Shown piece by piece: positions 41,601 through 64,000 of a DNA stretch of 64,000 bases (positions within the stretch are counted from its first letter, which is position 1; each line of letters begins with the position of its first letter). The translations under genes were made by a program, and so were the position numbers. The notes beneath the pieces are model-generated. The model was not told where the DNA came from. It did no database searches and saw only the letters and a program-made list of their open reading frames with translations. Source of the DNA: Echinococcus granulosus (Eukaryota > Platyhelminthes > Cestoda > Cyclophyllidea > Taeniidae); assembly GCF_000524195.1 (NCBI RefSeq), contig NW_020170456.1:205097-269096 (forward strand), written 5' to 3'.

Positions 41601-44600
41601 ACATCCTAGACTTAATAAATCCAATTCACTAGGCCATCGGATTGTAAAAAATCAGCTGCAAAAAATAGGTAAAGTTTTCAATAGAGGTTGTAAAAATGCT
41701 CTCCAAGTTTAATCCATAGTCAGCGTCGATTCTAGAAAATTAAAACAGTGTTTCTTGGCATAAAAAGCATCGGAAAATAGGCGACATTGACCACGCCGTG
41801 AAGGCGTGGGATAGGCTGGAAAAAGTTCCTGTTTTCTCTCCCTCGCTCTCCGCTTTCAAAGGTTGCAACAGGCGGAGAAGCATTTCCTGCTTTTTCTCCT
41901 TAATAGCACCATGAAAGTGTGCACGAGCTGGATGCTCCTCCCCTTTCTGTTTACTTTAACTTTGTGTTTAACCACGCGAGCTATTCACCTCATGCTCGTT
42001 GTCCTCCCAGCTTCTTCTGCGCCCTTTCAATAGGTCCTGCTTCCAGAAGACCAATATATAGCGCATTGCCCCAGGGGGGAATTTTTCCCTTTATAAGCAA
42101 ATACGACCTACAACTACTTTCAAGGTGTTTAAATAGGCTAAAATGCCGCGTCTTTTAAAAGTGGAGCATTAATTGAAACATGCGCATTAAAACAAGAGTG
42201 GACAAACCTGCTCTGCAATTTTTTTCTCCGCCTCTTCCACGGCTGTCAATTCTTGAGCGTTGGCCAAGTTATCAACCGCAATAGCCAAGAAGACGTTCAA
42301 AAGCGTATCTGGCGTTATGAATTTTTTTGTATTCGGGGTCAAGGAAAAGGGCATGTCACTTGGGGACATAAAGACAACTTTTCTGCCTCTTAAACCCTCT
42401 AATTCATATCAATGACAACTTTGTGGGCTTCTGTGTTGGAGGGAAGGGGCCACAATTGTGCAGAACTCCGCAAATTGGAGTTTGCTTGGCGTTCCGCTGT
42501 AATAGGCTTCTTTTTTCTTTTGCATTTCTGGAGACGGGAAAGATGAGGATCGTGGGCCATGCTCGGTCGATCCTCCCCTTTCAATAGCAAAGAAAAAAAC
42601 CGGAGCGTCTCACAAGCGAAATCTGCAGTCACTGCAGTGGAACTGACAGTGCAGCAACCTTTGTTAAAATGGACCCCTTTTCCTGTTCTTCCATCGATTT
42701 TGGCGGTACATGTAGGGCACAAATTTTACCCTTTCTTTCCTTCCCATCTAAAAGTTTCAAGCTGACAAACTAATGATGTAGGAGAAGTGATCTTTTCTTA
42801 TTTAAAAGTGTTTCTTTCTAAACCACAAGTAAAATTGAGCGCATCCTTAAGGAAATGAAAATTAACCTGGCGTGTCATTTAAAAAACCTAAAATCTCGAT
42901 TTCTTCTCTTTTATGCTACTTTTGTAACAAACCACACCAGGAGCAGGGACCGAGTGAGTGCAGACACTTTTAGTTAATTTGAAAAAAAGTGGCAACTGCC
43001 TTTGGGCAAAAAAAGGGGGAGGAGGAGGAGCGACTCCTTTGAAATTGTTGAGCTTGAACCCAAGAACAAGAGTGCGTGTGGAGGGTGACTGGTAAAACGG
43101 TAAGTGAAGTGAAATGTCTTTTAGGAGACCCTAAACACAGAAAAATGTGGTCACCTTCGTGGTGATACAGTTTGCTCTGCATAAAAAGGAAAATTAAACA
43201 AAATTTAAAAAATTTGTCTGTTTTTACTAAATAATTTTTAAAAATTATACGATACAAGATTTAGGAAGTGGTTGTGCTGGAGAAAAAGGAGCGCCGCCCG
43301 AAAAGCGATGCTACCAACACGTAATGCAATCGCTGTCTTTAGAATTTTTTTTTCTCTTCTTGTGAAATAAATGAAAAAAGAAGCTATTTTAGCCTTTAAA
43401 AGGGAAGAGGAAAAAGGATACAGTTGCCGAAGATCATGAGGAGGACGAAGTAGATGGAGTAGATGAAGGCGCCTTTGGCGAGGCCGCCCTGCGAGCGGAT
43501 GCCGTTGTACATGATGGTGTTCCAGTCCTCGCCTGTAAGAATCTAAAAACATATTTTCCACTTTCTTCCATTCTATTCCCATTCTTTCATCAAAAAAGAA
43601 CTGACTTAAAGTCTAGCAATTGATAAATGCTTATTTTTTAGAAAAAATCATGAAAATTTTTAAGGCCAATTATTTTTCCAACTTCCCTTTTTTATCGTCT
43701 TAAAATTGTTAGTTCATGAGATAATAAATCTTTTTGGGTAAGGTTCTGTCGACTCAGCTTCTGTGTTTTGGCGCAATTTTTACTACAAAAAAAAAAAATA
43801 ATTCTGTTACCTGAAAAACGGTGAGGAGAGCCTTTGCGAAGGTGTCAAAGTGTTGACTCGGCTGTCCATCCTCAAACGCAAAGCTAAATTATTTAAAAAG
43901 GTTAGTGGTCAAAAACACGTAAAAGGTGGCATAAAAGGCGAACCAGCAAAAAAAACTAATTTAAATAAATTCCTTTTTTTGCCCTTTATTCCCACAAATA
44001 TTTTAAATTTTTGTCTCTCTTTTCAGCTTAAAAGATGTTAAGCTTTCCTGGCCGGCGAGTAACGATGACATTATTTCGCAAGAAATTTTGTTGTAGAAAA
44101 GGCAAAAAAAAATTCCCCAATTAATCGGCTAAATTTCGACTCAAATATATTCTGGGTTTATTTAACAAAAAATGGGCTTTAAATTCGTCATTTTTCGGGC
44201 CATGGGGTATAAGGCGAATTTTGCCTTTCCAGATCAACAAACTTAAGTTGTCTTATAGTCCCATAAAAGCAGTCATTTGGAGAAAATAAGCCTAATTTTT
44301 TGCCCCTGGAAAGGCAAACGGCAAGTACTCGTCTTCCGAGTCGTGTTAATGTAGGTCCTTGAAACAAAGAGTCACCTTATGTTGTGATCTACGTGGTTAA
44401 ATTGCCACGTGTTTTACAGGCTATAAACACACTAGTGATAATTTTCGCCTATTGTTATAAAATCTGCGTACTATTTCTGGGCGAAACTCCGCTTTTTGGA
44501 CAGTAAATTTTTTGCAGGCATTTGCATCCTAAGCGCTACTTACATAGGTTATAAGTAGTACGCATAGTTCTCGCAGTCTCCGTTAAGCAAAAACGCTATT

Positions 44601-47600
44601 AAGAGATGCAAAAAACTTACATTTACTAGCATCATTTTCACTGTCTTTTTTTAAATTTTTAACTGGTATGGCCTATTTTACAGCACACTAAGATTAAGTA
44701 GGGCGTGTGAACACTTTCTTGGTCCCAGGAGGGCGAAACAAAAGGCGCCAATGAAACGGGTAAAGAGGAAGGGAGCACGTACCCTCCACCAAACAACTGC
44801 ATTCCAAGTAGAGCAAATATCAGCATGAAGAGGAAGAGGAGGAACAGGAGGCTGACGATGCTGCGCATGGAGTTCAGCAGCGATAGCATGAGATTCCTCA
44901 GCGAGGCCCAGTACCTGAGGCAGGAGGAGAAAGATGTACTTCACCTGGCCAGAGGGCGTCGCAACGCCTCGGATAATACAAGATTTTTACAAGCAGTCGC
45001 CTTCAATTTAAAAAGATCCCTTAAACACTAAGGAACTTTTTTTAGATAGAAACGGGTAAGAAGGAGCAGTCAATTTACGTTTGTAGGCCTTTTCAGGTCT
45101 AGTTGGCAGTTGGAGGCAAAAGCAAAAAAATACATACAGATAACGTGACCAAAATAAAATATCTACGGGAAAATCAGCTGCGTTTGGAGAGAATACGACT
45201 ATTAAAAAATGTACTTTATTTTCCCTGTAAGGTAGTCTACAATAAAAATGGCAAAATATTTCAAAAAATAAGTGAATAACGTCACTTTTTCATTTAAAAA
45301 GGTAACAAGACAGATTCGTAAGTTTACCGGGTGCATTTGAAAATTCGTAATAGACGAATACTTCGTAGAGCTGAAAATCCGAAGGAGTCCGTTGGAAAGA
45401 ACATCTGCCAGACGACTTCAAAGAAGCTCGCCAGTACGACCTTGTGTGGAGAAGAAGAGGAGGGGGAGGAGGAGGAGGAGGAGGAGAAAAAATGGCTAGT
45501 GGACTTTTTGAATTTCTCTGTCATGGGTCAGGTGCATCCTCTCCTCCACCAGCGTCTATATCCAGCCAGACTTTGTCTGGGAACAATAAACCTTACGATG
45601 TCCGCCGAGTTGCCTCAAGACGCCACATGGTTAGCAGAAGTAAGGAAATGGTTCTGATTATGCACTGGTAGTCTTTAAGTAGTCCATTTCCCTGCCCTCC
45701 TACCTATTTTCCACAACTTTTGGTGCAATTCTTTGAGGGAAGGAGAAAACTCTCAAACCACCCTCCTTTTTCTTCCTATCCGCTGTCGAATTCTTACCGA
45801 TTCCCCCGTCTTTCTTACTACTGGTAAATAATTTCTACATATCTGTGGGAGAAAGTATGTACTAGCCCTAGAACCAAAACCTAATGAACTTCCTGGAGGT
45901 AATAAATGTTTATTGGTAAGTGATTTATTATTCATAATCCCGGTTGATCCAACGACCCTTGGGCAGTCGTATCGGCATGGCGGCGTGCCTAATTACATGC
46001 TTATGTATTATTCCAGAGGATAGAAAAAGCAGACGCTTCCAAGACTTAGAGAAGCAGTTTGGGGAAGTGGCTTACCACGCAGTCAAAGATGTTGAAAGAT
46101 GACTGGAAGTAGAGGAATGGACCGAGGGCGAATATCTTGAGGAGCATCTCGGTGAGGAATAAGCCCAGGAATACAAACTCTGCAAGGTCTGGTGGTAGAA
46201 ACATTCGGTTTTTCAGCCACAATGTTAGAAAGGAATAAATTAGTGCACACAAGGCAAAAACCGATTAACCAAGTACAAAGGGAGCGGCGGTTGTCACAGC
46301 CTAATCCACCGCAACGGATCAGATGGGATATCGCCAACTCCTAAGTAAATCGGTAAATAAAAACCACATTTTTTCCGAATTAGAAACCATTTACATCACC
46401 GTGGATGTATCCTGCCCTACCAATCGGACGGCGGCAGGGTGTGGATGAAAATCTGAGCGTCACATATATGTGACGTCAAAGGGAGAGGGGAACGAGACCT
46501 ACGCAGGAAGTCGCTAAGCCAGGCGGGCTGGCCGTAGTGTTCAATTGCGACGCAAATGGCGTTGAGAAACACCACCACCAGCACGACGAGATAGAAGGCT
46601 TGCGATTTTATCGACAGGCGACATCTGCACCTTTTTTGGGGAGAAAAAGAGCAAAAAAAAGGAATACCAGAACATTTAATACGCATCTGTAGAAAATTAT
46701 AAATATTATTTAACATCCGAATTTTTGGTTTTGAATTTTGAAGCGAAATAATAGTTTAGATTTCCATTTTGGCCTTCCATAAATATTAAATGTAAAAGGC
46801 CCCTGCTTCCTTATTTAAATGTAACGAATTTTTTTCTACTTTCCGTGCACAAAATACAATTTTTTGGATAAAATGTGCTAGTTTAACACATCTAATCCGT
46901 CTTTTTGATTGGTTCATGACTTCCAGCTAATCGGGTTCAAGATAATTTAGTACACTCATTAAAGCGCGTGTATTTTCGCGCCGAAAAAGGCGAAAGCAAA
47001 TCGGAGTGCAGAAATCCCGCCTACCTGATGCGTTTTAACAGACGACAACAGGTTCCCGACCTCATTGCCGCAAAACGCCGCTTATCACCCAAATCTAAAT
47101 GGGACAAGTTTAAAACGGAAGCGAAAAAAGTGTGCTGCATTTCCCGGTAGATTAATTAATGATAAAAATTTATTTTTTAATCTCAAAATTGGCTGCAAAT
47201 TTTATTGAGGGTAGAGTTGGGAGGATTGCCTTTTCCCCTGAACTCTAAACAAGTAAATGGCGTAAAAGGAACAAAGAAGGGAGGAAAGAGGAGAAATGAA
47301 TAAGAATTTTCCTTACCCAAACCTTCGTAATCTTGTTCAGGGAAGGACCTTCCATTCTTGCTTTCCTTTTTGGCTCGCCGCCTAGCTGAAAGCAAGGTGA
47401 ACACCCAAAAAAGCTTATCCTTAAGTAGAAAACATTTGATTTCATTAGAGGAAATTACACTCCTCCAAAAGTGAAGCATATTTAAAAGGGAGAAAATTGG
47501 CTTATTTTTGAGTTCCTATGTCCAATGGGGGCAAATTATGTCGCGCAGGAAACGGCGGCGTCAAACCAGCAGCACATCTTGCCATTACTGCCTCCGGGGC

Positions 47601-50600
47601 AGCCAGGACCTCCCTCAAGAATTACGCTTCTAGGGAAAGCAAATCTTTTCCTCTCCAGAGACCAGGCCCCTTTTCTAATTCAAAAATGCCTGTTCTGCTT
47701 CGCATGTCATCACCCGTTGAATGGCATAAATAGGCACTGATTATACATGGATTATAGAAGATAGGAGTAAACGTGAGACAGTGTTGTCCGCTTTGCCTTC
47801 CTCTCTCCCATCTACACGTATGGTGATGGATTTTCCCAGGCGGAAATCTAGCGCTCTCCCTCCACTGACCGCCAAGTGCCAAAAAATCGGCGACAATAAT
47901 TTGTAGCATAAAGGACGAAGCTGGAAGGGGTTAAAGTCCCACCCCGCCCCTCTCCTTCTTTTGCGGTCTCGTGGATGTTTCTCAAGGGGACCAATCCTGC
48001 CGCAGAGGGGGGGGGGGGGGAATCATATTATGGCGACATAAACTCCCTCATTTAACTTTGCCCTACAATACGCCGCCTTTTTCCTCACACTGTAACTATC
48101 TGAAATGGCGCATTCATAAAACGACAAAAAATTGCATTCTTTGACGTTTAGTGTCACTCGTTATCATTGTATAGCATGGTTGACAAGCCTTTGCTTAGCA
48201 ACTTTCACTTAACTCCCTCTTTCATGTCCACGTAAGCAAAGCCCCAGTGTTAACCAATGACCTTGACGCCTCGCCTCAAATTACACCCATGAAGTACTTT
48301 TATGTCAAGAGGGAGAATGGCCGAGACGGCACTAAACAACAGTCGCCAGTCCTTTCCATGCATTACGCAACCGTCTGACTAGTGACTTTCGTTTTGTCAG
48401 GCTCTACATATCACAAACCACCACTGTTGCAAGCCACTTCAGGAGAAGATTAGAGAGAAAATATCGGAACCCCTTTTCATGGTGCCTTTGACCACGATAG
48501 AAATAGAAAATTGACAGGTGACAAAGTTTTTTCCGAACCCTTCCCCGAATTCCATCGTCATTGAGGAGGCTAGGTGGGGAGATGTGAGGCCACTGCTTAC
48601 CTTGCAGAATTCGTAACTTTTCCGCCATCGTAGTCTGTTCTTCCGCCAAGATAACTTCCTCTACAAAACGAGAGTTGTAAGACTGTTTTACTCCACCAAA
48701 TAAACGTACACTTGCAGCCAAATAAGTTAACCCCTGTTTAAAAAAAAACAACTGTCAATTTTATTCATTTCTCACTCCGAGTTAGTTAAGCAGGCAAAAA
48801 TATCAACATGATTTGCCAGTTTCTCTTGTTTATTTATTTTGGCAGTAAGCGGTTAATTTTTTTCTACTTTCCGGACCACCCTACCTGCTTTGTGGATCCA
48901 CTCTATGTAGCCGTCCAACTCGCGTTCGGTTTGTTGCTGTCGCCGCAGCTTAAGAAAGGCTCGTCGTTTCTCCACCCTCTCTCTCTCCTTGGCAAATTCT
49001 CTATAAGATACAAAGAAATTCTGAAGAAAAAAATGGTGAATCAATAGTGTTACACTTTGTTTAAACAGGCTGTCTTTGTTTAAATTACACGGACAAATAT
49101 CCAGGGGAGTTTTGAATCCAAAAGATGGGGGGTGGCTATTCATTCGTCTTTTCTTTTGAAAATGAACTTCGGCAGTTTTTTTTTAAAGACGTTCGATTCA
49201 AGTGAATTATTTCTCGCTTTGGTTTGTTAATTTAAAATAACACCTTTTTTGTCTTTGCTCTCGGTTTCCAATGGATTAGTTCATCAGGCACCGGTTATTA
49301 CGTGTGGATATCAACGCCTCATCCCTTGCGTACCGTCAGCAGGTGAAAAAGAAAGGAAAGAGTTGGGATTAATAAAAACTCGGTGTCTAAATGAATCTGG
49401 GAGAAATATTTGCCAAAAAGTTCATCAAAGCCGCCCTGATATTTCTCAATCACGCTCTTTGAGGTAATCTTCGCAATCTTGCCAAAAAGCACCTTCCAGT
49501 CGCCTAAACTGCCTCCTTAAAGAAATCTCAACTTGTTATCACCCGTCTTGGAAGAGATAGGGGGGTTCAGAATTCCCAAATAAAGTGAGGCTTTACGGTG
49601 AGTGTCATCAAAAGCGTCCTTTGATCCCCAAAGGTAAGTCTAATCCTTAGTAAGCCCTGGTGTGCTAAAACAAGCATCTCTTTGGGGCACAGCTTACTAG
49701 TTTGCTCACTAAACATCTCCCAGTCTTTTATTGTGCCTTCAAAATGGATCTCTGCCTCACCGTACCATCCATGGATCCTTCTCACAGACAAAAAAACTTT
49801 TTTTCAATGATGGTAAGCCACTTCTCCTGTCCCTTTTTACCTGATGAACAATTATGGAGCGGTTCATGATGGTCGAAGAAGATGAAAGGTGTGGGGGGAA
49901 AGGGATTGTGAGGGTAGGACAGAGAGGGCGCCGTGGAAAACGCTCCTCCGAACTCGTAGGTAGGTCAGTTTCCCATTAAGCTAGCAAGCTTCATTCCTTA
50001 CAATTTTCTTTTATTAATTATTCTTAACAAGAACAAAAAATAAAATAAGTTAAAGTTTTGTCAAGTTTTTTGTTACTTTTTACCACTTTTATGAAAAAAG
50101 TCTCAGTTTAGAAGTGTCGATGTTAATTTGTCCACTGAAAAGGGAAGACCACCTTTCCCACCATTTCTACCAGTGATTTAACAGTTACATCCCTAAATGT
50201 CAGCTAGTCTTTTCTGTTGGCTGCCTCCTTTTCTTTTTTAACAATAAATTGGGAAGGATTGAAAATTTTTAGGAATTTGGCTCTTTTTTGGTTCGACTTA
50301 GGAAGAAAAATTTATGCAGTGTCCTTCTTTTTTAAAGAGTACTGGAAATATGTCAAAATTTTTAGAAGCCTTAAGAAGTAAAACAACCGTTTCTCCTCAG
50401 GCAGGCCGAAAAAGTTAAAGATAAGCTTTCGTAAATCCTCAGTTTGATACTTCCCCCTCCAAATGTAGCATTGGGAAATCTGACCACCAAGGCTGGAGGC
50501 TTCTTCATTCCCTACCACAGCTATGAATGAATGCCTTCCTCTCCAACCCTCCTCCCTTTCCAATGTCATACAAGTCGTCAAAATTGTCATAGGCTGCAAC

Positions 50601-53600
50601 CAGAATATCACCAACTGGGTGGCAGCGTTTCTACTAAAAAGGAAAGGAGTGAGAGGTTGACGAGAACAATTAGGCCCCTCCACTTGAAAGCCGTTTTGGG
50701 GCATAACCGAGAACCAAGTGGATTAACTGATTTTGCCACCTGCTTTATCCCCTTCTTAGAAAAAGAGAAGGATTTTCAGCTGGAGGAGGCCTCCTCTCAA
50801 GGTGGGTGGAGAGCGTTCACTGGGTGGGAAGGTTGAGGAGATACCGAGGTGACAGAAAATGCGCCTTCTGAGTCAAGTTTCACTTGTACCGTATGAATAG
50901 GTCACTAAACATCTTTTCTAAATATTTTTACCTCATATACCCACCTTTTTCAAAAATATATGCGGCTGATTTAAAAGGTAAAGGGTCTACTTTTTTGGGT
51001 AAAAATAGGCAAATTGCATGGACGTTCAAGATAAAGTTCCCTTCATTCGACCATACAACATTTCTACTCAAAGGGATTCTCTTCTGTTCGGCTAATTGTT
51101 TCTTTCCTTTTTTGTCTGTTTAAACTTTGACTTAGGTAATCTCTTTTCCGTGGCACCGGCAAATGACTAGTCCACCCTGCTGGAGGGAACTTTTCGCCCC
51201 ACCTCCTCTCACCAGCTCTGCCTCTCCGCTGCCCCTTTTCCACGTAAGTGGGAGTCAAGCCCAGGTTTCCCTTTACGGTGTTACAATTTGTGGGGGAATC
51301 ACCTCACCCCCTAAATTCAATTCTACCTCTAATGTGTTTGAGGTGTTGAAAAATAAACAAAAGGATACCTTGAACTTTCTTTAGGGAGGGAGGAGAAAAA
51401 GGATGAAGGAAAGGATACTTTTTCAAGCAAAAGAAGCCTCCGGAGAACTGCTTACCCACTCAGCACACCGAGGACGAGATTGAGCATGAAGAATGATCCG
51501 ACCACAATGAGGGTGAGGAAGTAGTAGAAGTTGAAGCGATTTCCGAAGGCAAAGTCCGTCTGTAAGAGTTTGGAAGAGGAGAATGCGGAGCAGCGCAGGG
51601 ATGGAGATGGGAAAATAAATAAGTCCCTCATAAAATCTCAGATTCCGCGATTGCGTCCGTAATTGTCAGGTGCCCACTGATGCACGACTACGTAATCTGC
51701 TTCCCCTCTCACCTTAAGTCAAGTCCTGGCGTCTATCCTCATGCCTTAAGGTCATGGCCGCAGTCGACTAGACGTCTGGAGTAGAATTGGGACAAGTCCA
51801 CTAGAGGCAAATTCGTCTCTCAAATAAGCAAATGGGAAAAGCATTCGAGTGCAGAGCATCTTTGGGTTGGGGTAACTTTAGCCTTTAACAGAACACATTT
51901 TTCTTGCCCAAACTGACAGTTTTTTTTTTGCTAGACCACAAAAGTCACAATATTTTCTGACAAGGGGGCATACATTTTGCCACCTCGCGCATGAAAAATT
52001 GCTGCTTCTGTTACCATCCTTTTCTTTCTCTCTTTGAAGATCGTTAAGAGGATTAAAATAAGCCACCTTTTCTCCTCACAAATAAATAGAATTATACATT
52101 TTTAAATGCTTTTTTGTCCCAAAGCCTTTGTGTCCCCTCATGGTCCCATTCTGACCTTTTTTGAGGCATCGCACCACCTCAGTCGGAGAGTGTCTAGCCT
52201 GTGCCATAACACCCGCACTGGATGACGTTCCCACAAGTCACGAGCTTATGAGATTTCGCGCAGGTGCCTCCGTTTCCCTTCATGTACTTTCCCGCCCTCT
52301 TACTACTTCCTTACATTGTACAGTCCTCCCCGAGGCGATGGAGCACGGAGTTGTGGGAACGGGGAGGCGGGTTGGCTTCTTTCCCTTTAAAAAGTGAAAT
52401 GTGCCCCCTTTTTTCTATCACAGGATGCTACGAATTACTTGTACGTTTTTAAAAGAGGAGAGAAATGAATTAAGAAGAATAATCCAACGTTGTTTTACTT
52501 ATGCATAATTTATGCCAATTAATTTGATCCCCACTCCAACAGTGCCTTGGGGATTATGGCCTGTCAGTTAAGTAGCTTCCTGTTTGGCCCATTTGATAGC
52601 ATCAAGCGAGGCTTGTCGAAGCCTGTAGGCGGTGTAAATGGCGAAGAGGAGAGGGGCTTTTCCGCTAAGATAAATGAATATCTGCCACGATTAGGGGGTG
52701 GGGGAAGGGAGAAGAGGGCGAGGAAGACTCAGACTCCAAATTATCCGATCTTCCCAATTTAAAAGGAAGGTGGAAACATTTACCGACGACATGATATCCG
52801 TCCAGCCTTCCATGGTGATGCATTGAAAGACGGTGAGCATGGAGTAGCCGATGTTGTCGAAGCTGGTGATGCCATAATTGGGACCCTCCCAGTAGCCTTT
52901 GCAGACATAGCCGGCGGGACAGACAAAGGCACCGGGTGGAACACCTTTTCCATGGGTGTGTGAGTCATTGGTGATCACACAGGGCACTAAGCGGGCAACA
53001 GTGGGGATGGAATTGGGCAATTCTTGAGGATTCCCTGGAAAGGAAGTAAAACGAGTCACAGGGTTTTTTTAATCTAGTCCTTTGATGACTAAGCGATTGA
53101 ACTAAATTGTGGAGATTTCCATATTATTCCAACAGAGTTTTTATGCGTGGTCCTTCCTCTCTGTTCTCCAAATAATCCTTACTATTCGGCTTCAGTGGCA
53201 ATTAATGGTAGCACTGGCCATTAATTCAACATCTAGTTGTGTGGAGGCGACAACCAGGTGTAAGAGATCATCAACTTCTTACATTTTCCTCAGTCTCGGC
53301 TTATGGACAAATGGCGAGAGAGCTGCAAGTCGAGTTGTGAACTCACGTTCATCGAAACAGGTTAGATGGAATCCGCCACCGTAGAACTCCAACCCCACGA
53401 TCGCTAGAACGACTATTCCAAAGAGGACCAGAAGACCTATTTGCAGGAGGGGCGCCATTGCCTTGATGAGGGACTTGAGGACAACTTGAAGGCCTAAAAA
53501 ATATTTTTAACTTGTCAAATTGCCGATCTAATATTGTTTTTCTGCTTAAATAGGAAATTTTGGGGCAAAGTTTGATAGAAGAGAACGATCATTTTGGGAG

Positions 53601-56600
53601 GGCGTACGTCTCACAAATAGATCTTCAGAAGGATCCATGGAGTAGATCTAAGAACAAAAAGTAGTGTTTTTCCTTCTAAAAAGGTGCTAAAATTTTAAAA
53701 GTTTGCCTTTTTGGAGAAGCATTTTTCGTGAAGTCAAACCCGAAAATAAGAGACGCCCGGTAGGAGCAAATCACACCCAACAATTAGACCTGACCATATT
53801 TCTGGTAATATATCGAGGTGTTTTTCTCTATTTTTCCGGGTTTTTTATCAAATGAGGTTTTTTTTCCATATCTTACCAACTACGAAGTTTTTCAAAAAAG
53901 GTGACCCTTTTAGGCTAAAAAATCAAGTTAATATTAGACTACGGAAAAAATTTGCACCACCTTTTGTAATTTGCCTGTTAATTAGACTTTTCTAGCCTTT
54001 TTTTTCTCTAGAAGGAGACAAGAAAAAGTGTACCGCTTTTTGGTACTCTATGGGTGACAGGTGATTGTTTAGTACTGCTGACAAAAGGACTGTTCGCCAG
54101 CACTTGGAGTTGTATCACGAGGGGCTACAGTCATCGTGGGGACGAGGTGAGGTGACATCCATCACCCCGCCGCCCATCCAAAGGTCTTTCGTGGAAAAAT
54201 TTCTGCGACGGTCGGGGAGTCACACAAATCCTTCTGTGTAGGGAGTGTCCACATTGACAACAGGTCAAGTCATGTCAAATGAAGGACATATGGGGGTGAA
54301 ATAGGTGAAACACCGCTTGCGAGAGCCTAGAGGGGCAAAAACGCAGTACCCACTCAATTATCAATTGGAGTACGTGACGCTTGTGATTGAAGGGTGGGAA
54401 TGGGGTAGGAAAGGTGGGGTTGGCGGCTGGAAAGGGGGCACTACAGCCTTACTGGGTATTCCGGAAACCAGTTTGAGCGGTCGTAAAACGCGAACGGCTC
54501 TGAGTGTTCGTAGGTCAATTCCTGTTCCTGTTTGAGCAAACACTGTGATGTAGCTATTTTGAAGCAGAGGAAAAAGTACGAGAAAATGGCGAAAAAGCAA
54601 GCAAAAAAGACTTTTCTATCTACTCAATAGATAAATCTGTGAAAACTAGTCGGTAAAAAGGTGGATATCTTTAGCCTGATTTTAAAATTGCTAGCGGCAT
54701 CTAGTTCTTTATTTATTTTCTTCTATCCGGTCCACTGGCCAGTGAGGCCTACCCGGTGATGACGACGGTGAAATCGAGGAGGTTCCAGACATTGCGCAGA
54801 TAGGCCCCGGGTTGTAATACAAATCCAAGAGCTACTATCTTCAGAATTGCCTCAAATGTAAAAATTCCTAGGAAATAATTTTCAAGGAATTCCTAAAATA
54901 CAAAAAGAGGGAAAGGTAAATAAGCCTTATATATTTCTGATAACTGATTTATTCCTCCCTTTCCGTCATTTTAAAAGAGGCCAGTGGGGATTCTCTTAGC
55001 GGAGGGTCGGCCACCACACCCCAGATGGTTTATCTTTCAAAAGGGGCCAAAAAGTGTCCGGAAATCTTTTACCAAATTAAATAGACCTACGAATGTATTT
55101 TATCTCTGGTCGAGAAGTTATTATATTGCTCTCCTCTCTATTGGGACAGTGTAACAAACGGCTCAACTGCTGATGAGGATTTAAGCCTGCCACACAATTA
55201 TCTCCCAACAGATTGAGGACGTCCCACACCTACTTTATTCCTTTCAGGCCAAATAATCTGTTTTTAAGACGGCCCTGATGTCCACGTTCGTTACAAAGTG
55301 GCAAAAAAGGAAAATTTAAGCTGTGGATTATGGGGAAAATCAGCGCGTCACTTGCGCGTGACGCTCTTGTCAAACACCAAAACTTTGCTTTACCGTAAAG
55401 AGCGAGATAATTTGTTTGGTTTTTGCAAATATTTTGCAAAACCTGTTTGTTAATTTGAGAACAACTGGGATGAGTTAAGAAAACTGGTGCGTCACATATA
55501 CATGTCGGTAAATGCAATCGAGTTAAAAACTCGACTTTATTTGAAAAAAAGCAAACTATTTTTAACTTTGTTTTCAAATTTTACAAAAAAATCTTGTTAA
55601 ATTCAAAAAAAACAACAGTGATTTGGGAAATGCGGGGCATCACGCATATGTGTCTCCCACACTAAACGTGTGGCAAATGTTATTTTGCCGCAAAAAAAGG
55701 AAAAATTATTTTTCGTTGTTTTTTGCTATTCATTGAGTGTGGAACCGTGTTGAGGTTGAAAACCGGAGGGTCGCATATACGTGTTGCTAATTCTTGACGT
55801 TATCAAGTGGCATCGTCTCCCCTCGGCTTGTTCTTGAGGAGGCATGACGTGGCTTGGATCCAGGATGATGTACTTTCACTCCGCAGGATGACCTCTTAGT
55901 CTTCGAACCATTCGGGAAACCCTTCAGTATGCTGCTTATAAGTTTTGTAAGATGGATATTCTTTCATTATTAGGGTGATGGGAAGACTCGTGACGCTATA
56001 TTTATCAGCAAAAGTGCTTCTGACTCCAAAATTAGCAGCTTTTTGTGATAAAGCATGGCGAATTTCATCACTAGGCTATCGAAATGTCAAAAACTTGTTA
56101 AACGAGGTTTAACACATCGATATTTAAAAAAAAAGGAGTAGAGGGGAATGAAGTGGGATTAGGCGGGTTACGGCGGCAAAGGCACAGCCCTTTGAACAGG
56201 CTACAATTCTCATCCATTTCACTGTGCCGGCGGCAAACCGCAAATCTGTCGGTGCCTATTTAGGTGTCTCCATCCGCCTGCCCGCGATGTATCCCCATTG
56301 CCAAGCCCATGTTATAAAAAGTGGAGTGACAAATTAATTTCCTCCTTTTTATCCTTCCTGCTCAGCATATTTTAGGGGCATTTTACAAATCAGGTGGGGT
56401 GGGGCCTGAGGTGGTGCGGTGGCGGGAGGGGGTGGGTCAAAAAAGGCACCACCGATGCTTTGCTGGTGCACAGTCGAGTGGGCAATAAACATTCATATTT
56501 ATCAGTTGAGAGTACGCCGAGAGGAGGGAAGGCAGTGCCAGCGTATTGTTTAAATTTGCATGAAGGCAACTAGGCTTGATTTTAATTACCAGCCAATGGG

Positions 56601-59600
56601 AGGACAGAGACGAGGTGCGATTTCCGCCAGGCGTTATCACTCTCTAAATTTGGTTGATGCAGATAACTTTGCAATTTACTCGGTAACACGACTTCTTTAC
56701 GGCTTTATTTGAGACTACAAAATTGCAAAAACGGAAAATCTCGTTTTAATTTTAAAAAATGGGAAAACCAAACATAATAGATAAACGAACAAGAGGTCAG
56801 TTGCTAAGAGGGTGGCTTAGTCTTTTTTACAATCTATAAGCCCACAATTATCGAATGTCTCGTAATCATGGTTTTTAAAGAAAAAAAGGGATTTTTCTCT
56901 TATTTTTCCTTCTTTATCTCCATTATGAGATTAGAGAAAAAGGAAAGGCGGAACCAGACATGGAAGGAGCTCCTCACCATTCTTGTGGAGATGGGTCGGC
57001 GATCATTGTTGGGTAGGTGGACCTCCATGGCAAGACACACACAGTTCGCGGTGATGGTGCACAACACTAAATACTCGAATGGTGTACAAGCAGAGAGGAA
57101 AATATCATGTCAAGGAAAAGATAATAAGAGGAATACTATTTTATCCCTTAATTTTCCTTCCAGATATTCCCTTCTACTCCCCATCGCCCAATTATCGACA
57201 CGCGTAGAGGCATAGATTTGCCTTCTTCATATACTTCTCATGTATAGCACTGAAAAGAAAGGAAAATTTCCCTTTATCTGGGTGCTTTAAAGTGTCGCCT
57301 TATTGACTACGCGTCTAGATAGTAGGGGAATGAGATTGCCCCTTTGCGTCCCCTCTCCTCGGTGCGTTATAACCTACACTTGTTGTAGGGGTTCCTACGA
57401 ACAGGCCTATAATTAGGAAGGACTCTTAACTACCGTCTAATTTTATCACTCGTCCCACTTTTATAAGTCGCAGGCGATAAAATGTTTGCCGTAAAAGAGC
57501 CATTTTGCGTTTAAAAAGGTCTTCTTTTTGAGCTTAACGAGTAAGGAGATGGGAAAAATAAAAATTTTTTCAAAATAACTTGCTTTTTTTCAAGACTACT
57601 GACTACTCCATAAATTTGGCCTGTTTTCCCTCTTCCCTTCACATTTATACACTAGGGGTAATATACTACTGATTAGGACAGCAGTAGCGCTCTCTCAAAG
57701 AAGCTCACTAATTAGGGGATGTTGTGTTTATCTTGTGCGACAGGAGCAGTTCAAATGGAAGCCGAAGGGCAATCACTTAGCCCGGGAGGCCCTCGTCAAG
57801 CCAAGTGATCAAGCATTATTAATAGCCATAAATGAACGTTCTCGCCACTTTGGGCCACGTTCCCCTTCTTTCCGGTCTGTCTATTTCCCCCGAAAAAGAC
57901 CAAATAGGGGCAAGAAATCCGCAATTTTGACTTCACTATCAAATCTAACATAGCCATTTCTGCGTTTTTATAGCTCACGATTTAACAGATGAAATGTGCT
58001 TAATTTGGGAGCAGATTAAATGATATTTTAATGTGATTTTGACCCAGAAAACAACAAAACAACCCTCAAAATGGACCCCTACGTGGACATATTTTAGGGC
58101 CGAGAGAGAAAGCGTGGAGCATAAGTTGTGCCTGGCAGGTGGAGAGGTACGGAAGTAACTCTTCACGAAAGTTGGCAGCGGAAGTGGACCTCTCCACGGT
58201 CCACCTACTTCACTATAGGCAGGACTGCCAAAAAAGATACAAAGTGCTTTTTTCCCACACAAGAGAGGGTGGGAGAAACCACTCCAGCTGCATGGGATAT
58301 CCCACAGTCCTCATGCTTAAACGGCTTGAAGTGGCTTCAGCCACAAAAATATTACTTCGTGCTATGAGAGAGCAGCAAAAACTGCGCCTCAGAACATGTC
58401 AAAAAGCCTCGCAGCACAGGAGATGGATGTTGCTGGTTAGTTTTTTCAACTTTAAAGCAAGCAAATTCGCTGTTTTTGTTGGGCGACTTTTGGCGGAGGC
58501 GGGGTGGGAAGGACGACCAAAAGCGGGAATCTCATCTCCCCAGTTCGATGCAAAGATACTGACTTGAAATTCTTAAATTTACAAATATCAATAAAAAACA
58601 GTTAAAAACTCTTTTTTATTCGAAACTTTTCCTAATTAGTAAGATTTTAAGGAAACAAATCGGAATAAATCTTTTAAATGGATGATTAGTCGGGTTCTTT
58701 GTTTTAAATACTTGACTTCTGCTAAGAATTAACATTTTTGCACTTTTAAAACAAGAAAGGAAAAGCCTTTTTTTATTTCAAAGGTCTCAAAGATGAGCAA
58801 AATCCATTTTATGTTGCCATATATATGGGTGGCTTGAATGAGCCTCCTACATTTCCGTTGTAGAGACAATAAGTGGTGATTGACATTGACAAGTAATGAA
58901 GCTGTCATTTGGATCTCTGACAACTTTACCGTCTATTTTAGAAAGTTATTTTACATTTCGTGTCTGTTAACCGCCTGGGTGGATGGATGTCCTTGATTCT
59001 GCAAGGTGGCGATTGCCACCGATCTCATCCCCATTCTCCCCCATTTCCTATTCACAAATACATGATATCGTCGGCCAGCCAGTGTTCTAGAATCCGGGCT
59101 CCGAAATCGGAGGTGGAAGAGAGGAACAACGAGTTTTCCCACATTTTTACTATTATCATAAAAACTCTTACATCTATTTGTCGCCCTTTCCTGACAAAAG
59201 TTCGGACATTCGGCGCCAAAATGGGAGACGTCCAGTTCTAACAACTAGTCGTTGAATAAATTACATCTGAGAGCGAACTTCTTTTCACCCTTTTTCTCAA
59301 TTCCAGACGCATCAATTAACTCGGCAAACTAGGCGTCCTGTATCACCAAGGCAGTGGCAGATACAAGGGGGGAACCAAAAAGGGGAAGATAAAGGGGCAT
59401 GTTTTTAGCCCCTCTCAGACTGACAGATGAAGTGTTTGTCCAAGGGCTGGTCTGCCCTGTACGCTCGCCTTCGTAAGACGAGGATGGTGCCCAATATTTT
59501 GAGCAAAAAGGAAATTTTTTCCCAGTTTTGAGGCAATTTGGAGGTTATTTCTTGCGCGAAATAAGCAACCTGGCCTGCTTTTGTTTGGGGGGCTGATAAA

Positions 59601-61032
59601 AAAAGACGATGTTTTTTGCTATTTCTTCTTGGAAAAACGATCACGCTTTTATTACTTCCATCAAAAAAGCTCAGTTAACATTTTAAATCTTTATTGTTTT
59701 TGAACAAAAAGCTATCTATGAAAAAAACTTCTTTTTAAAAAAGCGCTCAATATTGCGTGACGTTTTTTATGAAAGGGAATAAGTAAAAAATCTGTCTCAT
59801 GATTTTAGGCTGGGCTCTACTTTAATTAGCACTTTTTAAATCTGTAAACAAAATTTCCCTTTTTGCTTACAATTTCCTTTTTAGATAAAAAATTTAAGCA
59901 TGGGAGGTAGTTGTTTAAACCTTCCTGTCAGGAATAAATATGTTTTAAAGTACGTTTTGGAGTCAAGCATGCTACTTAAATTACTAGTGAGTAGACCACC
60001 AGTTTATGAAATTGAATTTTTGGAAATTGTACGGTCACTTGCCTTGAGTCAGGCAAATGTGCTAATTGGGCAAAGAGGGACTTAAACTCTTTTACTTTAT
60101 CACTTTGATTTCACCAAAATTTGATGAGCAGAATAAAGAAGCAACAATCCGCAATTTTTTTTTCCAAATCAAAAAGTAGTGCTTTAACATTTTACCGCAA
60201 ATTTTAAAAATGCAATTATTCTAGCCGCAGTTGCCTTGATCGTTTGTATTGGTGCAAGAAGACGACTTTTATGCTACCAGAGGAGCTACTTGATGGTTGC
60301 AAAAGTCGCCAGCAAATGTCTGTTACTTAAACCTAAAAACCGTTTTAACCTTTTGAGAAAAAAGTTACCAGAACTACATAGCTGCAGAGATAGGTGAAAA
60401 AATGACTCTAAAATAACTCTTATACCTGGATGGAGGCCAAGTATTTGTAGTTCTTAAATAAACCGCTCGGGTAAATGGTAACTGTTGGAACTAAGCGGTT
60501 GGTGCTCATCTCCTCCCCACTTACAATCACAAGTCCCTAAAGTGTTTCTTGCACAGATTTTTACCGACGTCTTGCTAGAAATTTCGTAAAAATTGCAAAA
60601 AGGATTTAAAATTATCACGTTTTAAAAATGGGTCAAACTCGCGGTCATTGTAAAAGGATATCCCCAATCGATGAGTGTTTTAGCCGCCTTTCGAAGTAGA
60701 TTACTCTCGGAGAAGATAAACAAGGATCGTCCACCACCGTTACCGCTATCGCCGCTTCCTATGCCAACCCCACCGTCGCCACTGCCAGTACTACCGTCGC
60801 CGACACCGCCACCGTCAACACTGTCTGACTTGACATTGTTGCGGTGGAAGGTACCATCGCTTGAGGCCCCGTTTTCCCTCGCGGTTGCAGAAAAGAAAGC
60901 AAATTTTCGTTTTGCGGTCTCTGGAGGCGCCTCACACACTGTGCTATGGTGGCCAATCTGGTGAAATCGTTGGATGGTCTTGAGAGCCACTTCTGTGACT
61001 CTTTCAGATTCCATGTTGTCGGCCTTATCCAT
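31814..61032 (-). CDS. Voltage-gated calcium channel alpha-1 subunit, Cav2 type (40 coding exons)
   Basis: The pore-forming subunit of a high-voltage-activated, presynaptic-type calcium channel in the plasma membrane. Forty exons join in continuous phase to about 2,041 residues, with one single-base discrepancy in exon 32. Visible features: [10 protein letters not shown] before IS1; four six-helix domains with Arg/Lys-rich S4 segments; selectivity glutamates E364 (TMEGW), E701 (TGEDW), E1089 (TGEGW) and E1408 (TGESW). A full alpha-interaction motif for the beta subunit lies at 429-446 ([18 protein letters not shown]). The region after IVS6 has the EF-hand, pre-IQ and IQ. Cav2 rather than Cav1 is indicated by [18 protein letters not shown] and [11 protein letters not shown]. 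The II-III loop is short. The start is the first in-frame ATG after a TATA box. Introns include two U12-type and three with GC donors. Flatworms have two Cav2 paralogs and I cannot say which this is. Confidence 0.95.
33519..33837 (-). CDS. Cav2 exon 39: C-terminal tail
   Basis: Starts NSIQERKKR after CCTAAG and ends with a phase-1 GTATGT donor. Pro/Ser-rich, contains a short helix-like stretch ([15 protein letters not shown]). A weaker internal donor (CAG/GTGAAC) occurs near 33562. Confidence 0.75.
33917..33980 (-). CDS. Cav2 exon 38: small tail exon
   Basis: 64 nt encoding [13 protein letters not shown] and a few more residues. Phases match both neighbours, GTAAGT donor. Confidence 0.7.
34054..34097 (-). 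CDS. Cav2 exon 37: small tail exon
   Basis: 44 nt encoding [14 protein letters not shown]. Enters after CTTTTTTAG in phase 0, GTAAGT donor. Confidence 0.7.
34210..34289 (-). CDS. Cav2 exon 36: IQ region
   Basis: Encodes [21 protein letters not shown], aligned to the calmodulin-binding IQ region of Cav2 channels. The residue at the IQ glutamine position is Tyr. Confidence 0.85.
34364..34574 (-). CDS. Cav2 exon 35: pre-IQ region
   Basis: Encodes [29 protein letters not shown] and [13 protein letters not shown]. Phase 0 in, phase 1 out. Confidence 0.93.
34691..34787 (-). CDS. Cav2 exon 34: post-EF-hand segment
   Basis: Encodes [18 protein letters not shown] and [13 protein letters not shown], diagnostic of Cav2. 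Confidence 0.93.
34865..35134 (-). CDS. Cav2 exon 33: domain IV pore, IVS6, EF-hand
   Basis: [12 protein letters not shown] carries pore glutamate E1408. [20 protein letters not shown] is IVS6. [13 protein letters not shown] begins the EF-hand. Phases 2 in, 2 out. Confidence 0.95.
35218..35313 (-). CDS. Cav2 exon 32: IVS5-pore linker, with apparent one-base frame break
   Basis: The start reads VFGTIA in phase 0 after CTTTCCTAG, as expected after GMQ in exon 31. The rest ([16 protein letters not shown], then NALLLLF) is open only one base further on. The exon is 96 nt where 95 would fit. See findings. Confidence 0.75.
35373..35386 (+). repeat. G14 homopolymer in a Cav2 intron
   Basis: Fourteen G on the plus strand, 60 bp upstream (sense direction) of the frame-broken exon 32. 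Confidence 0.8.
35738..35923 (-). CDS. Cav2 exon 31: IVS4 and IVS5
   Basis: [20 protein letters not shown] is the IV sensor. IVS5 ends IYAIVGMQ. It leaves at a GC donor (CAG/GCATGT). Confidence 0.92.
35999..36280 (-). CDS. Cav2 exon 30: IVS2 and IVS3
   Basis: 94 codons, starting [10 protein letters not shown]. Includes [18 protein letters not shown] and [18 protein letters not shown]. Confidence 0.92.
36357..36521 (-). CDS. Cav2 exon 29: III-IV linker and IVS1
   Basis: [13 protein letters not shown] through [19 protein letters not shown]. It leaves at a GC donor (AAG/GCAAGA) in phase 0. Confidence 0.95.
36587..36788 (-). CDS. Cav2 exon 28: IIIS6
   Basis: [19 protein letters not shown] is IIIS6, followed by [17 protein letters not shown]. 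Donor GTTGGC. Confidence 0.95.
37073..37213 (-). CDS. Cav2 exon 27: domain III pore loop
   Basis: [20 protein letters not shown] holds pore glutamate E1089. The acceptor AACTAG at 37214-37215 is the one that keeps the phase from exon 26. Confidence 0.9.
37746..37906 (-). CDS. Cav2 exon 26: IIIS5
   Basis: [20 protein letters not shown] then [16 protein letters not shown]. Donor GTAAGT, phase 2. Confidence 0.95.
37960..38044 (-). CDS. Cav2 exon 25: IIIS4
   Basis: [18 protein letters not shown] is the III sensor. The donor GTTTTT is weak, but conservation on both sides supports it. Confidence 0.95.
38109..38150 (-). CDS. Cav2 exon 24: 42-nt microexon in the IIIS3-S4 loop
   Basis: Encodes [13 protein letters not shown]. 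Both splice phases fit, and 42 nt is a multiple of three, so it could be skipped. Confidence 0.75.
38232..38338 (-). CDS. Cav2 exon 23: IIIS2-S3
   Basis: [20 protein letters not shown] then [14 protein letters not shown]. Donor GTACGA, phase 2. Confidence 0.93.
38487..38676 (-). CDS. Cav2 exon 22: IIIS1-S2
   Basis: [31 protein letters not shown] and VFTMEMILK. It leaves at a GC donor (AAG/GCAAGC). The next exon starts LIDLG in phase 0, which fixes this boundary. Confidence 0.95.
38767..38881 (-). CDS. Cav2 exon 21: end of the II-III loop
   Basis: [15 protein letters not shown] then [15 protein letters not shown], matching the conserved PYSSMFI-S-NP segment before IIIS1. Confidence 0.88.
41089..41132 (-). 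CDS. Cav2 exon 20: II-III loop
   Basis: 44 nt encoding [14 protein letters not shown]. Phases fit exons 19 and 21. The frame stays open upstream to about 41290, so a longer alternative exon is possible. Confidence 0.7.
41395..41477 (-). CDS. Cav2 exon 19: II-III loop
   Basis: [20 protein letters not shown] and a short charged end. Phase 0 in, 2 out (GTAAAT). Confidence 0.75.
41791..41809. other. Perfect 7-bp hairpin in a Cav2 intron
   Basis: CCACGCC and GGCGTGG with a 5-nt loop, in the intron between exons 18 and 19. Function unknown. Confidence 0.4.
42208..42308 (-). CDS. Cav2 exon 18: end of IIS6
   Basis: [20 protein letters not shown], then a charged stretch. Entered from the U12-type GT-AG intron. 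Donor GTTTGT. Confidence 0.93.
42309..43421 (-). other. U12-type GT-AG intron of Cav2 (between exons 17 and 18)
   Basis: The donor GTATCCTTTTT matches the minor-class 5' consensus. TTCCTTGAC at 42338-42346 matches the U12 branch site, 30 nt before the AG. Phase 1. The branch distance is longer than the usual 10-20 nt. Confidence 0.75.
43422..43542 (-). CDS. Cav2 exon 17: domain II pore and IIS6 start
   Basis: [15 protein letters not shown] holds pore glutamate E701, then [15 protein letters not shown]. It leaves at a U12-type donor. Confidence 0.95.
43811..43883 (-). CDS. Cav2 exon 16: IIS5-pore linker
   Basis: 73 nt encoding [20 protein letters not shown] and TVFQ. Phase 2 in, 0 out. Confidence 0.92.
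44783..44914 (-). CDS. Cav2 exon 15: IIS5
   Basis: [20 protein letters not shown] then [19 protein letters not shown] donor. Confidence 0.95.
45328..45440 (-). CDS. Cav2 exon 14: IIS3-IIS4
   Basis: [13 protein letters not shown] then [16 protein letters not shown], the II sensor. The pyrimidine tract of its acceptor is a TCC repeat. Confidence 0.95.
45450..45486 (+). repeat. (GGA)n microsatellite
   Basis: On the Cav2 sense strand it is (TCC)n and lies directly before the exon 14 acceptor. Confidence 0.85.
46076..46188 (-). CDS. Cav2 exon 13: IIS2-S3
   Basis: [20 protein letters not shown] then [11 protein letters not shown]. Phase 1 in, 0 out (GTAAGC). Confidence 0.95.
46458..46478. repeat. 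Perfect 18-bp palindrome plus overlapping TGACGTCA
   Basis: CGTCACATATATGTGACG at 46458-46475 is its own reverse complement. TGACGTCA (a CRE-type site) overlaps it at 46471-46478. It lies in the intron after exon 12 and resembles repeats in intron 2. Confidence 0.7.
46503..46624 (-). CDS. Cav2 exon 12: IIS1
   Basis: [19 protein letters not shown] then [13 protein letters not shown]. An alternative acceptor six bases upstream would add two residues in the same phase. Confidence 0.9.
47025..47094 (-). CDS. Cav2 exon 11: I-II loop
   Basis: 70 nt encoding [20 protein letters not shown]. It is found only by phase: without it exons 10 and 12 do not join in frame. Confidence 0.75.
47317..47385 (-). 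CDS. Cav2 exon 10: I-II loop
   Basis: 69 nt encoding [28 protein letters not shown] is conserved after the AID in Cav2 channels. Confidence 0.85.
48007..48020 (+). repeat. G14 homopolymer in a Cav2 intron
   Basis: Fourteen G on the plus strand. A second G14 lies at 35373-35386 in the intron before exon 32. Confidence 0.8.
48601..48660 (-). CDS. Cav2 exon 9: I-II loop after the AID
   Basis: 60 nt encoding [19 protein letters not shown]. Phase 1 in and out. Confidence 0.9.
48885..49000 (-). CDS. Cav2 exon 8: beta-subunit interaction domain
   Basis: [15 protein letters not shown] then [17 protein letters not shown], a complete QQ-x-E-x2-L-x-G-Y-x2-W-I-x3-E motif with the Glu in exon 9. Confidence 0.96.
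51456..51559 (-). CDS. Cav2 exon 7: IS6
   Basis: [20 protein letters not shown] then [13 protein letters not shown]. Phase 0 in, 2 out. Confidence 0.95.
52784..53034 (-). CDS. Cav2 exon 6: domain I extracellular loop and pore
   Basis: [20 protein letters not shown], then [20 protein letters not shown] with pore glutamate E364. GTAAAT donor. Confidence 0.95.
53347..53493 (-). CDS. Cav2 exon 5: IS5
   Basis: [20 protein letters not shown] then [22 protein letters not shown] donor, phase 1. Confidence 0.95.
54453..54553 (-). CDS. Cav2 exon 4: IS4
   Basis: [19 protein letters not shown] is the I sensor. The donor GTAAGG interrupts IPS, which exon 5 completes. Confidence 0.95.
54753..54892 (-). 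CDS. Cav2 exon 3: IS2-S3
   Basis: [20 protein letters not shown] then [19 protein letters not shown]. Confidence 0.95.
55345..55787. repeat. Four spaced copies of a near-palindromic CATATA/GTGACG motif
   Basis: Copies at 55345-55364 (GCGTCAC..GTGACGC), 55489-55506, 55638-55653 and 55771-55787 are spaced 144, 149 and 133 bp apart. The sequence between them is AT-rich and loosely similar. It may be a degenerate tandem repeat in Cav2 intron 2. Confidence 0.45.
56978..57083 (-). CDS. Cav2 exon 2: IS1
   Basis: [20 protein letters not shown] then [12 protein letters not shown]. It begins after TTGTAC and not AG. It ends in phase 0 at GTGAGG. Confidence 0.93.
57084..60661 (-). other. U12-type AT-AC intron of Cav2 (between exons 1 and 2)
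   Basis: The donor is ATATCCTTTT (60652-60661), a full match to the minor-class consensus. The intron ends TTGTAC, and TTCCTTGAC at 57109-57117 matches the branch site 26 nt upstream. It is phase 2, and joining restores Trp-Gly-Pro-Phe-Glu-Tyr. No GT donor is available at the end of exon 1. AT-AC introns are known in voltage-gated sodium and calcium channel genes of other animals. Confidence 0.88.
60662..61032 (-). CDS. Cav2 exon 1: N-terminus
   Basis: 123 codons from ATG at 61032. Contains [18 protein letters not shown], a Gly/Ser/Asp-rich low-complexity stretch (residues 73-101) and conserved [14 protein letters not shown] leading to LIDW. An open frame continues upstream to a TTG, with a stop just before it, so this ATG is the first in frame. 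A second ATG follows at residue 7. Confidence 0.9.
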
Positions 61033-63869: not shown

Positions 63870-64000
63870 GAGGGACTTATCAATTCGCAGGTTCATTGCG
63901 GACAGAATTAACTCAAAAAAGGTTGTCCTGTTCACAAAATACTATTGTCCCTACTGCAGAAAGGCCAAAAAAATATTTCGCAAACATTTAGGACGTGATT
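63870..64000 (+). CDS. Glutaredoxin-domain protein, partial exon (runs off the window)
   Basis: After a likely acceptor (CATATACAG, 63868-63869) the frame reads RDLSIRRFIADRINSKKVV, then LFTKYYCPYCRKAKKIF, and stays open to the last base. The helix-strand-CPYC-helix layout is that of a dithiol glutaredoxin, which reduces protein and glutathione disulfides. It could be a stand-alone glutaredoxin or the N-terminal glutaredoxin domain of a thioredoxin-glutathione reductase, the flatworm enzyme that merges both systems. The window ends before this can be decided. An alternative acceptor at 63889-63890 would drop seven residues in the same frame. Confidence 0.8.

What the first reader, a model, noticed from the sequence alone, without database searches (positions are those of the whole stretch)
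57084..60661. AT-AC minor-class intron before the first transmembrane segment of Cav2
Exon 1 ends without any GT donor but with a perfect ATATCCTTTT. Exon 2 follows TTGTAC, and a TTCCTTGAC branch site is present. Joining restores the conserved W-x-PFEY segment. Minor-class AT-AC introns are known in voltage-gated sodium and calcium channel genes, so this looks like a deeply conserved U12 intron. It implies a working minor spliceosome in this lineage, which many invertebrates have lost.
Basis: partly seen in the sequence, partly recalled or inferred. Interest (0 to 1): 0.75.

Follow-up and report, generated by a model that had tools for sequence, protein, structure and literature searches.

The report
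Tapeworm calcium-channel AT-AC minor intron
A tapeworm calcium-channel gene carries a rare kind of intron, removed by the cell's second splicing machine, at a spot where almost all animal sodium and calcium channels are reported to have it; the intron looks real and anciently inherited, and the deposited model of this same gene splices it differently and probably wrongly.

Summary
On the minus strand a Cav2 gene has exon 1 ending at 60662, an intron 60661-57084 (3578 nt) starting ATATCCTTTT and ending TTGTAC with TTCCTTGAC at 57117-57109, and exon 2 from 57083; joining gives DWG-PFEYLVL, phase 2. All five Cav/Nav genes found there have a U12-type intron at this site: AT-AC in two Cav2 and one Nav-like gene, GT-AG in two Cav1-like genes. 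The window gene has a second U12-type intron (43421-42309). The site is already published as U12-type and conserved in almost all Cav and Nav channels, and minor snRNAs are published for schistosomes, so this is a new member of a known kind. Added: the deposited E. granulosus model forces a GT-AG junction that drops PFEYLV; 1 of 13 flatworm models seen holds the right join; at the second site two paralogues carry U2-type introns; branch-to-acceptor spacings (26 and 30 nt) exceed the published 11-13 nt optimum. No transcript was available.

The parts
60662..61032 (-). Cav2 exon 1, coding from the first in-frame ATG (61032; the deposited model starts at 61014) to the U12-type donor; ends ...[10 protein letters not shown]|
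57084..60661 (-). AT-AC U12-type intron, 3578 nt, phase 2
60652..60661 (-). U12-type 5' splice site ATATCCTTTT; complementary to the 5' ends of the genome's U11 and U6atac candidates
57109..57117 (-). U12-type branch site TTCCTTGAC; complementary to the AAGGAA element of the U12 candidate; branch A to last intron base 26 nt
57084..57089 (-). 3' splice site TTGTAC
56978..57083 (-). Cav2 exon 2 (DI-S1, [35 protein letters not shown]), followed by donor GTGAGG at 56977
57067..60638 (-). GT-AG junction forced by the deposited E. granulosus protein model (P0048); replaces PFEYLV by YPFTMTAM
42309..43421 (-). Second U12-type intron of the same gene, GT-AG subtype (GTATCCTTTTT ... TTCCTTGAC at 42346-42338 ... 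GCCAG), in DII-S6 between GN and [10 protein letters not shown], 1113 nt; branch-to-acceptor 30 nt
   Evidence: P0048 has the same junction protein
34359..61032 (-). Conserved core of the Cav2 alpha-1 gene (domains I-IV), as blocks shared with the C271 paralogue

Best explanation
The interval is an ancestral AT-AC, U12-type (minor-class) spliceosomal intron between the N-terminal exon and the DI-S1 exon of an Echinococcus granulosus Cav2 alpha-1 gene. Inferred mechanism: U11 and then U6atac pair with ATATCCTTTT, U12 pairs with TTCCTTGAC and bulges the branch adenosine, and the minor spliceosome joins GG|A in phase 2, restoring W-G-PFEY at the start of S1. Shown: signals, frame, conservation of the site in the other Cav and Nav genes of the genome, and snRNA gene candidates. 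Inferred: that splicing occurs this way in the worm.
For: Donor, branch site and acceptor match the U12 AT-AC type and the join restores the conserved segment. The protein is closest to Cav2.3 and Cav2.2 (229 and 223 bits; best Cav1 147). U12 (77.7 bits), U11 (62.4) and U6atac (35.8) pass Rfam cut-offs and U4atac scores 47.4 against 53; in the 14 control genomes nothing passes any cut-off of these four. The U4atac and U6atac candidates share a 12-bp perfect duplex; 1 of 1000 shuffles reaches the duplex energy. The four Cav site-A donors pair with the U11 and U6atac 5' ends more stably than the one U2-type donor tried, and five branch sites pair with U12, two of them (C271, C165) with interior mismatches. 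A zinc finger over the Pfam cut-off has U11-48K as its best PDB match. A U12-type donor sits at this site, in phase 2, in 5 of 5 Cav/Nav genes found. The trematode model P0049 reads IIEWGPFEYMVL, and 86 of the 96 proteins P0048-P0143, many of them insect isoforms, hold W-x-PFEY. PMC6259924 describes this D1S1 U12-type site as conserved in almost all Cav and Nav channels.
Against: No transcript data. Branch-to-acceptor spacing is 26 nt against a stated optimum of 11-13 nt (PMC3584512). U4atac is below its gathering score and U6atac is only 2.8 bits above; at E up to 1 the U6atac model also gave sub-cut-off matches in 8 of 14 control genomes, U11 in 1, U4atac in 1. The zinc-finger family also passed its cut-off in a control archaeon and GTSF1 is close behind U11-48K. 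PDCD7/U11-59K was not found, a search the tool itself calls uninformative. A genome-wide TTCCTTAAC...YAC pattern showed no excess over its reversed control (478 against 826). The deposited model of this gene uses a GT-AG junction instead.
Confidence: 0.95

Rival explanations
1. A GT-AG major-class intron is used, as in the deposited E. granulosus model: donor GTTTGACC at 60638, acceptor TTTAG at 57067, giving [18 protein letters not shown].
For: It is the deposited protein model of this gene (P0048), and the window DNA reproduces that protein.
Against: The donor matches 2 of 7 consensus positions. It removes PFEYLV, while W-x-PFEY is kept in 86 of 96 proteins P0048-P0143. The E. multilocularis models break the gene differently: P0001 stops after reading through the donor; P0033 begins with an ORF that lies inside the intron and drops PFE.
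Confidence: 0.03
2. The intron has AT-AC ends but is processed by the major spliceosome, as described for some sodium-channel introns.
For: AT-AC U2-type introns exist in sodium channel genes (PMC2831892).
Against: Those have G at +5; here +5 is C in a full ATATCCTTTT, with a U12-type branch site.
Confidence: 0.01
3. Exon 1 is not joined to exon 2 at all: an alternative first exon or a trans-spliced leader supplies the N-terminus, and the motif match is coincidence.
For: Several public flatworm and mollusc models begin inside or just before exon 2; spliced-leader trans-splicing is reported for schistosomes (PMC2770079).
Against: Exon 1 encodes the SLFIFSE.N..RK segment that aligns with human Cav2 up to the junction; the same arrangement occurs in five channel genes; P0049 has the join.
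Confidence: 0.01

Closest known systems
D1S1 U12-type intron of Cav1, Cav2, Cav3, Nav1 and Nav2 channels (PMC6259924, passages read)
   Same: Same place at DI-S1, same donor consensus ATATCCTTT, same branch consensus TTCCTTRAC
   Different: Longer branch-to-acceptor spacing in the window gene; GT-AG subtype in the two Cav1-like genes of this genome
Minor introns 2 and 13 of rat Cacna1c (PMC8767276, passages read)
   Same: Two minor introns in one Cav alpha-1 gene; U6atac knock-down there raised retention of intron 13, the one tested
   Different: Whether introns 2 and 13 coincide with the two sites here was not checked
Minor spliceosomal snRNAs of Schistosoma mansoni and S. japonicum (PMC2770079, passages read)
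   Same: Minor snRNAs reported, with a U4atac/U6atac duplex
   Different: A cestode here; one match at or near the Rfam cut-off for each snRNA

Membership tests
U12-type (minor-class) intron | Donor [AG]TATCCTT | tested here: met
   ATATCCTTTT at 60661
U12-type (minor-class) intron | Branch site TTCCTTRAY near the 3' end | tested here: met
   TTCCTTGAC at 57117-57109
U12-type (minor-class) intron | Short branch-to-acceptor spacing (stated optimum 11-13 nt) | tested here: inconclusive
   26 nt at site A and 30 nt at site B in the window gene; 22, 11, 19 and 20 nt at site A in C271, C264, C165 and C270 (optimum)
U12-type (minor-class) intron | Matching termini (AT with AC, GT with AG) | tested here: met
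   AT-AC at 60661-57084; GT-AG at 43421-42309
U12-type (minor-class) intron | Minor-spliceosome snRNAs in the genome | tested here: met
   U11, U12, U6atac over cut-off; U4atac 47.4 against 53 but pairs with U6atac
U12-type (minor-class) intron | Removal depends on U11/U12/U6atac | not testable with these tools
   No transcript or perturbation data
Cav2 alpha-1 gene | Closer to Cav2 than to Cav1, Cav3 or Nav | tested here: met
   229, 223 and 196 bits to Cav2.3, 2.2 and 2.1; best Cav1 147; best Nav 81.6; best Cav3 79.6
Conserved D1S1 channel intron | Same position and phase in paralogues and other animals | tested here: met
   Phase 2 just before DI-S1 in 5 of 5 Cav/Nav genes found; other animals from PMC6259924 only

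The most novel reading that the evidence does not exclude
In this tapeworm lineage the minor spliceosome tolerates unusually long branch-to-acceptor spacings (22, 26 and 30 nt at three Cav2 introns), and its channel paralogues form a natural series: U12-type retained at the S1 site in all five genes, with both AT-AC and GT-AG subtypes, and two parallel U12-to-U2 conversions at the DII-S6 site.
Probability: 0.3. Interest if true: 0.4.

Novelty: new member of a known kind. Interest (0 to 1): 0.28.

Why it matters
The biology is a clean case of a known deep homology. The practical point is that gene models that force GT-AG ends get this gene wrong: the deposited E. granulosus model lacks PFEYLV at the start of S1, the E. 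multilocularis gene appears to be split into two models, and of 13 flatworm models seen (some of them pieces of one gene) 1 holds the W-x-PFEY join. Work on flatworm calcium channels that relies on such models starts from wrong N-termini.

Tried and rejected
A GT-AG alternative was rejected on donor quality, loss of a conserved segment and inconsistency among models. A genome-wide test for AT-AC 3' ends gave no excess over its control (478 against 826), and the donor 10-mer gave only a modest excess (449 against 297); neither is used as evidence. PDCD7 gave no match, and the tool says this does not show absence. The window itself holds no Rfam match at gathering score. Two further GTATCCTTT words at 51418 and 51368 lie inside an intron that already has a GTAAGC donor at 51455 and are treated as chance.

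Limits of the counts. In one search, 30 conserved block ends were scanned with a donor consensus from recall; an exact [AG]TATCCTT sits at the block edge in 2 of 30 (60661, 43421); block ends are not all exact exon ends, and some (for example 52757, 36357, 35735) showed no convincing donor. The 13 flatworm models are P0001, P0003, P0004, P0005, P0006, P0008 (by its TsM tag), P0009, P0033, P0037, P0038, P0048, P0049 and P0136; P0002 and P0007 were left out because no species name was shown (neither holds the join). The protein searches could return only proteins of 0.55-1.75 times 203, 1026 and 1546 aa, and the third listed the best 120 of 141. The five Cav/Nav genes are those that I recognised from the DI matches; C259 is nearest NALCN and was not examined for this site; other weak matches on the same contigs were taken to be other domains of the same genes.

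Literature. Wu and Krainer 1999 (PMC84117) was asked for and is not held, so it is known here only through papers that cite it. Listings for tapeworm minor introns, flatworm Cav2 and tapeworm Nav showed no paper describing this intron in Echinococcus; one search listed 20 of 488 papers. No supplements were read.

Full report
What is there. The finding lies on the minus strand. Exon 1 ends at 60662 and is followed by ATATCCTTTT; the intron runs to 57084, ends TTGTAC and is 3578 nt long; TTCCTTGAC lies at 57117-57109. Joining gives ...[47 protein letters not shown] in phase 2. The protein is a Cav2 alpha-1 subunit: 229 bits to Cav2.3, 223 to Cav2.2, 196 to Cav2.1, 147 to the best Cav1 (that query lacks three residues, EFL, at the exon 2-3 junction, by a slip of mine). 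Retaining the intron ends the frame after [13 protein letters not shown].

Which organism. The window lies in contig C197 of G000, 407576 bases long. A public Echinococcus granulosus protein, P0048, comes from a contig of the same length, and its first 117 residues equal the window's exon 1 peptide from the second ATG. I take the genome to be E. granulosus; this rests on those two matches.

Is it chance? A second-order Markov model of the window gives about 4e-6 for ATATCCTTTT at one given position and about 1e-3 for TTCCTTRAY in the last 40 nt. The 10-mer itself occurs 449 times in the genome (297 for the reversed control), so it is the position at a conserved junction, in frame, that counts.

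Other channel genes of the genome. led to three more Cav genes. C271 is Cav2-like (90.7 bits to Cav2.2, best Cav1 45.8). C264 is Cav1-like (59.9 against 43.0 bits). C165 is nearer Cav1, less clearly (76.4 against 67.0 bits). A further gene, on C270, is Nav-like: its S2-S3 exon gives 70.8 bits to sodium channel type 10 against 57.9 to the best Cav, and its joined exons 1-2 match sodium channels alone at E up to 0.001, at up to 47.3 bits. These four and the window gene all have a U12-type donor just before DI-S1 in phase 2: ATATCCTTTT (window), ATATCCTTTTT (C271), ATATCCTTTT (C270), GTATCCTTTT (C264), GTATCCTTTA (C165), with acceptors AC, AC, AC, AG, AG. Branch motifs are TTCCTTGAC, ATCCTTAAC, TTCCTTAAC, TTCCTTAAA and GGCCTTAAC; the C271 and C264 motifs depart from TTCCTTRAY at one base and the C165 motif at two. 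Spacings from branch A to the last intron base are 26, 22, 20, 11 and 19 nt. In C270 two nearer AC dinucleotides (10 and 18 nt) would break the frame, so that acceptor was chosen by frame.

A second minor intron. In DII-S6, between GN and YTLLNVF, the window gene has GTATCCTTTTT ... TTCCTTGAC ... GCCAG (43421-42309, 1113 nt, spacing 30 nt). C264 has GTATCCTTTGC there with TTCCCTAAC upstream of the acceptor, while C271 has GTAAGTC and C165 GTGAGTT. So the U12 type is present in one Cav2 and one Cav1-like gene and a U2 type in the other two; the Nav-like gene was not examined there. The simplest reading is an ancestral U12 intron with two conversions; that is inference, as no tree was built.

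Machinery. Rfam models find U12 (77.7 bits, cut-off 53), U11 (62.4, cut-off 39), U6atac (35.8, cut-off 33) and U4atac (47.4, cut-off 53) (the same four again). In the 14 control genomes nothing passed a cut-off of these four, though at E up to 1 weak matches appeared in 8 for U6atac, 1 for U11 and 1 for U4atac; U12 was run at E up to 0.001 and gave none there. The U4atac and U6atac candidates form a 12-bp perfect duplex (TCCGACCTTGTG with CACAAGGTCGGA); 1 of 1000 shuffles of the U6atac part reaches the overall duplex energy. The U11 and U6atac 5' ends pair with the four Cav site-A donors more stably than with the one U2-type donor tried, and U12 pairs with the five branch sites tried, two with interior mismatches; these pairings had no shuffle control. 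A CHHC zinc finger (33.7 bits, cut-off 21.1, where Sulfolobus also passed) has U11-48K as its best solved match at 30.0 bits, with GTSF1 close behind at 28.5, so its identity is likely rather than settled. PDCD7 was not found, uninformatively.

Public gene models. Of 13 flatworm models seen, some of them pieces of one gene, one holds the W-x-PFEY join: Cryptocotyle lingua P0049, IIEWGPFEYMVL. The E. granulosus model P0048 reads through the donor (WGYPFTMTA) and jumps to an AG inside exon 2; its junction 60639|57066 is reproduced from the window DNA. E. multilocularis P0001 and Taenia solium P0003 stop after WGYPFT.., and Anoplocephala P0009 reads WGYPL... Trematode P0004 and P0038 read ..CT-PFEY and Fasciola P0136 ..AT-PFEY. 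The read-through residues Y-P-F/L after WG, and T before PFEY, fit a conserved ATATCCTT donor and AC acceptor in those species; that is indirect, since their DNA was not seen. P0048 is named L-type alpha-1D although its gene is nearest Cav2.

Comparison with what is known. [quoted passage not shown] PMC2770079 (passages, part of the abstract included) reports a complete set of minor snRNAs in schistosomes. PMC10639083 (passages) lists Schistosoma among groups with minor introns and includes E. multilocularis in a figure. The finding is therefore a new, well supported member of a known kind. PMC3584512 (passages) gives an optimum branch-to-acceptor distance of 11-13 nt; the window gene's 26 and 30 nt are the one tested respect in which it departs from the type.

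Verdict. Ordinary in kind, correct in detail, and useful for fixing gene models. Direct RNA evidence is missing.

Noticed in passing
window 42309-43421 (-): Second U12-type intron of the same gene, GT-AG subtype, in DII-S6; U12-type also in paralogue C264 but U2-type in C271 and C165.
   Followed up: yes
window 57067-60638 (-); protein P0048: The deposited E. granulosus model of this gene forces a GT-AG junction, lacks PFEYLV at the start of S1, and is named L-type alpha-1D although it is nearest Cav2.
   Followed up: yes
   Followed up: partly
L052 and L053 (G000 contig C270, about 119300-138700): A Nav-like channel gene in this tapeworm genome, with an AT-AC U12-type intron (119414-119712) before DI-S1; PMC6259924 says Nav1 is lacking in parasitic flatworms, naming Schistosoma.
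   Followed up: partly
window 57109-57117 and 42338-42346 (-); C271 site A: Branch-to-acceptor spacings of 26, 30 and 22 nt, longer than the published 11-13 nt optimum.
   Followed up: partly
window 51368 and 51418 (-): Two GTATCCTTT words inside an intron just downstream of a normal GTAAGC donor at 51455; probably chance.
   Followed up: partly
window 63853-63999 (+): Open frame with a glutaredoxin match (CPYC, 27.1 bits) running off the window end; start of a neighbouring gene on the other strand.
   Followed up: partly
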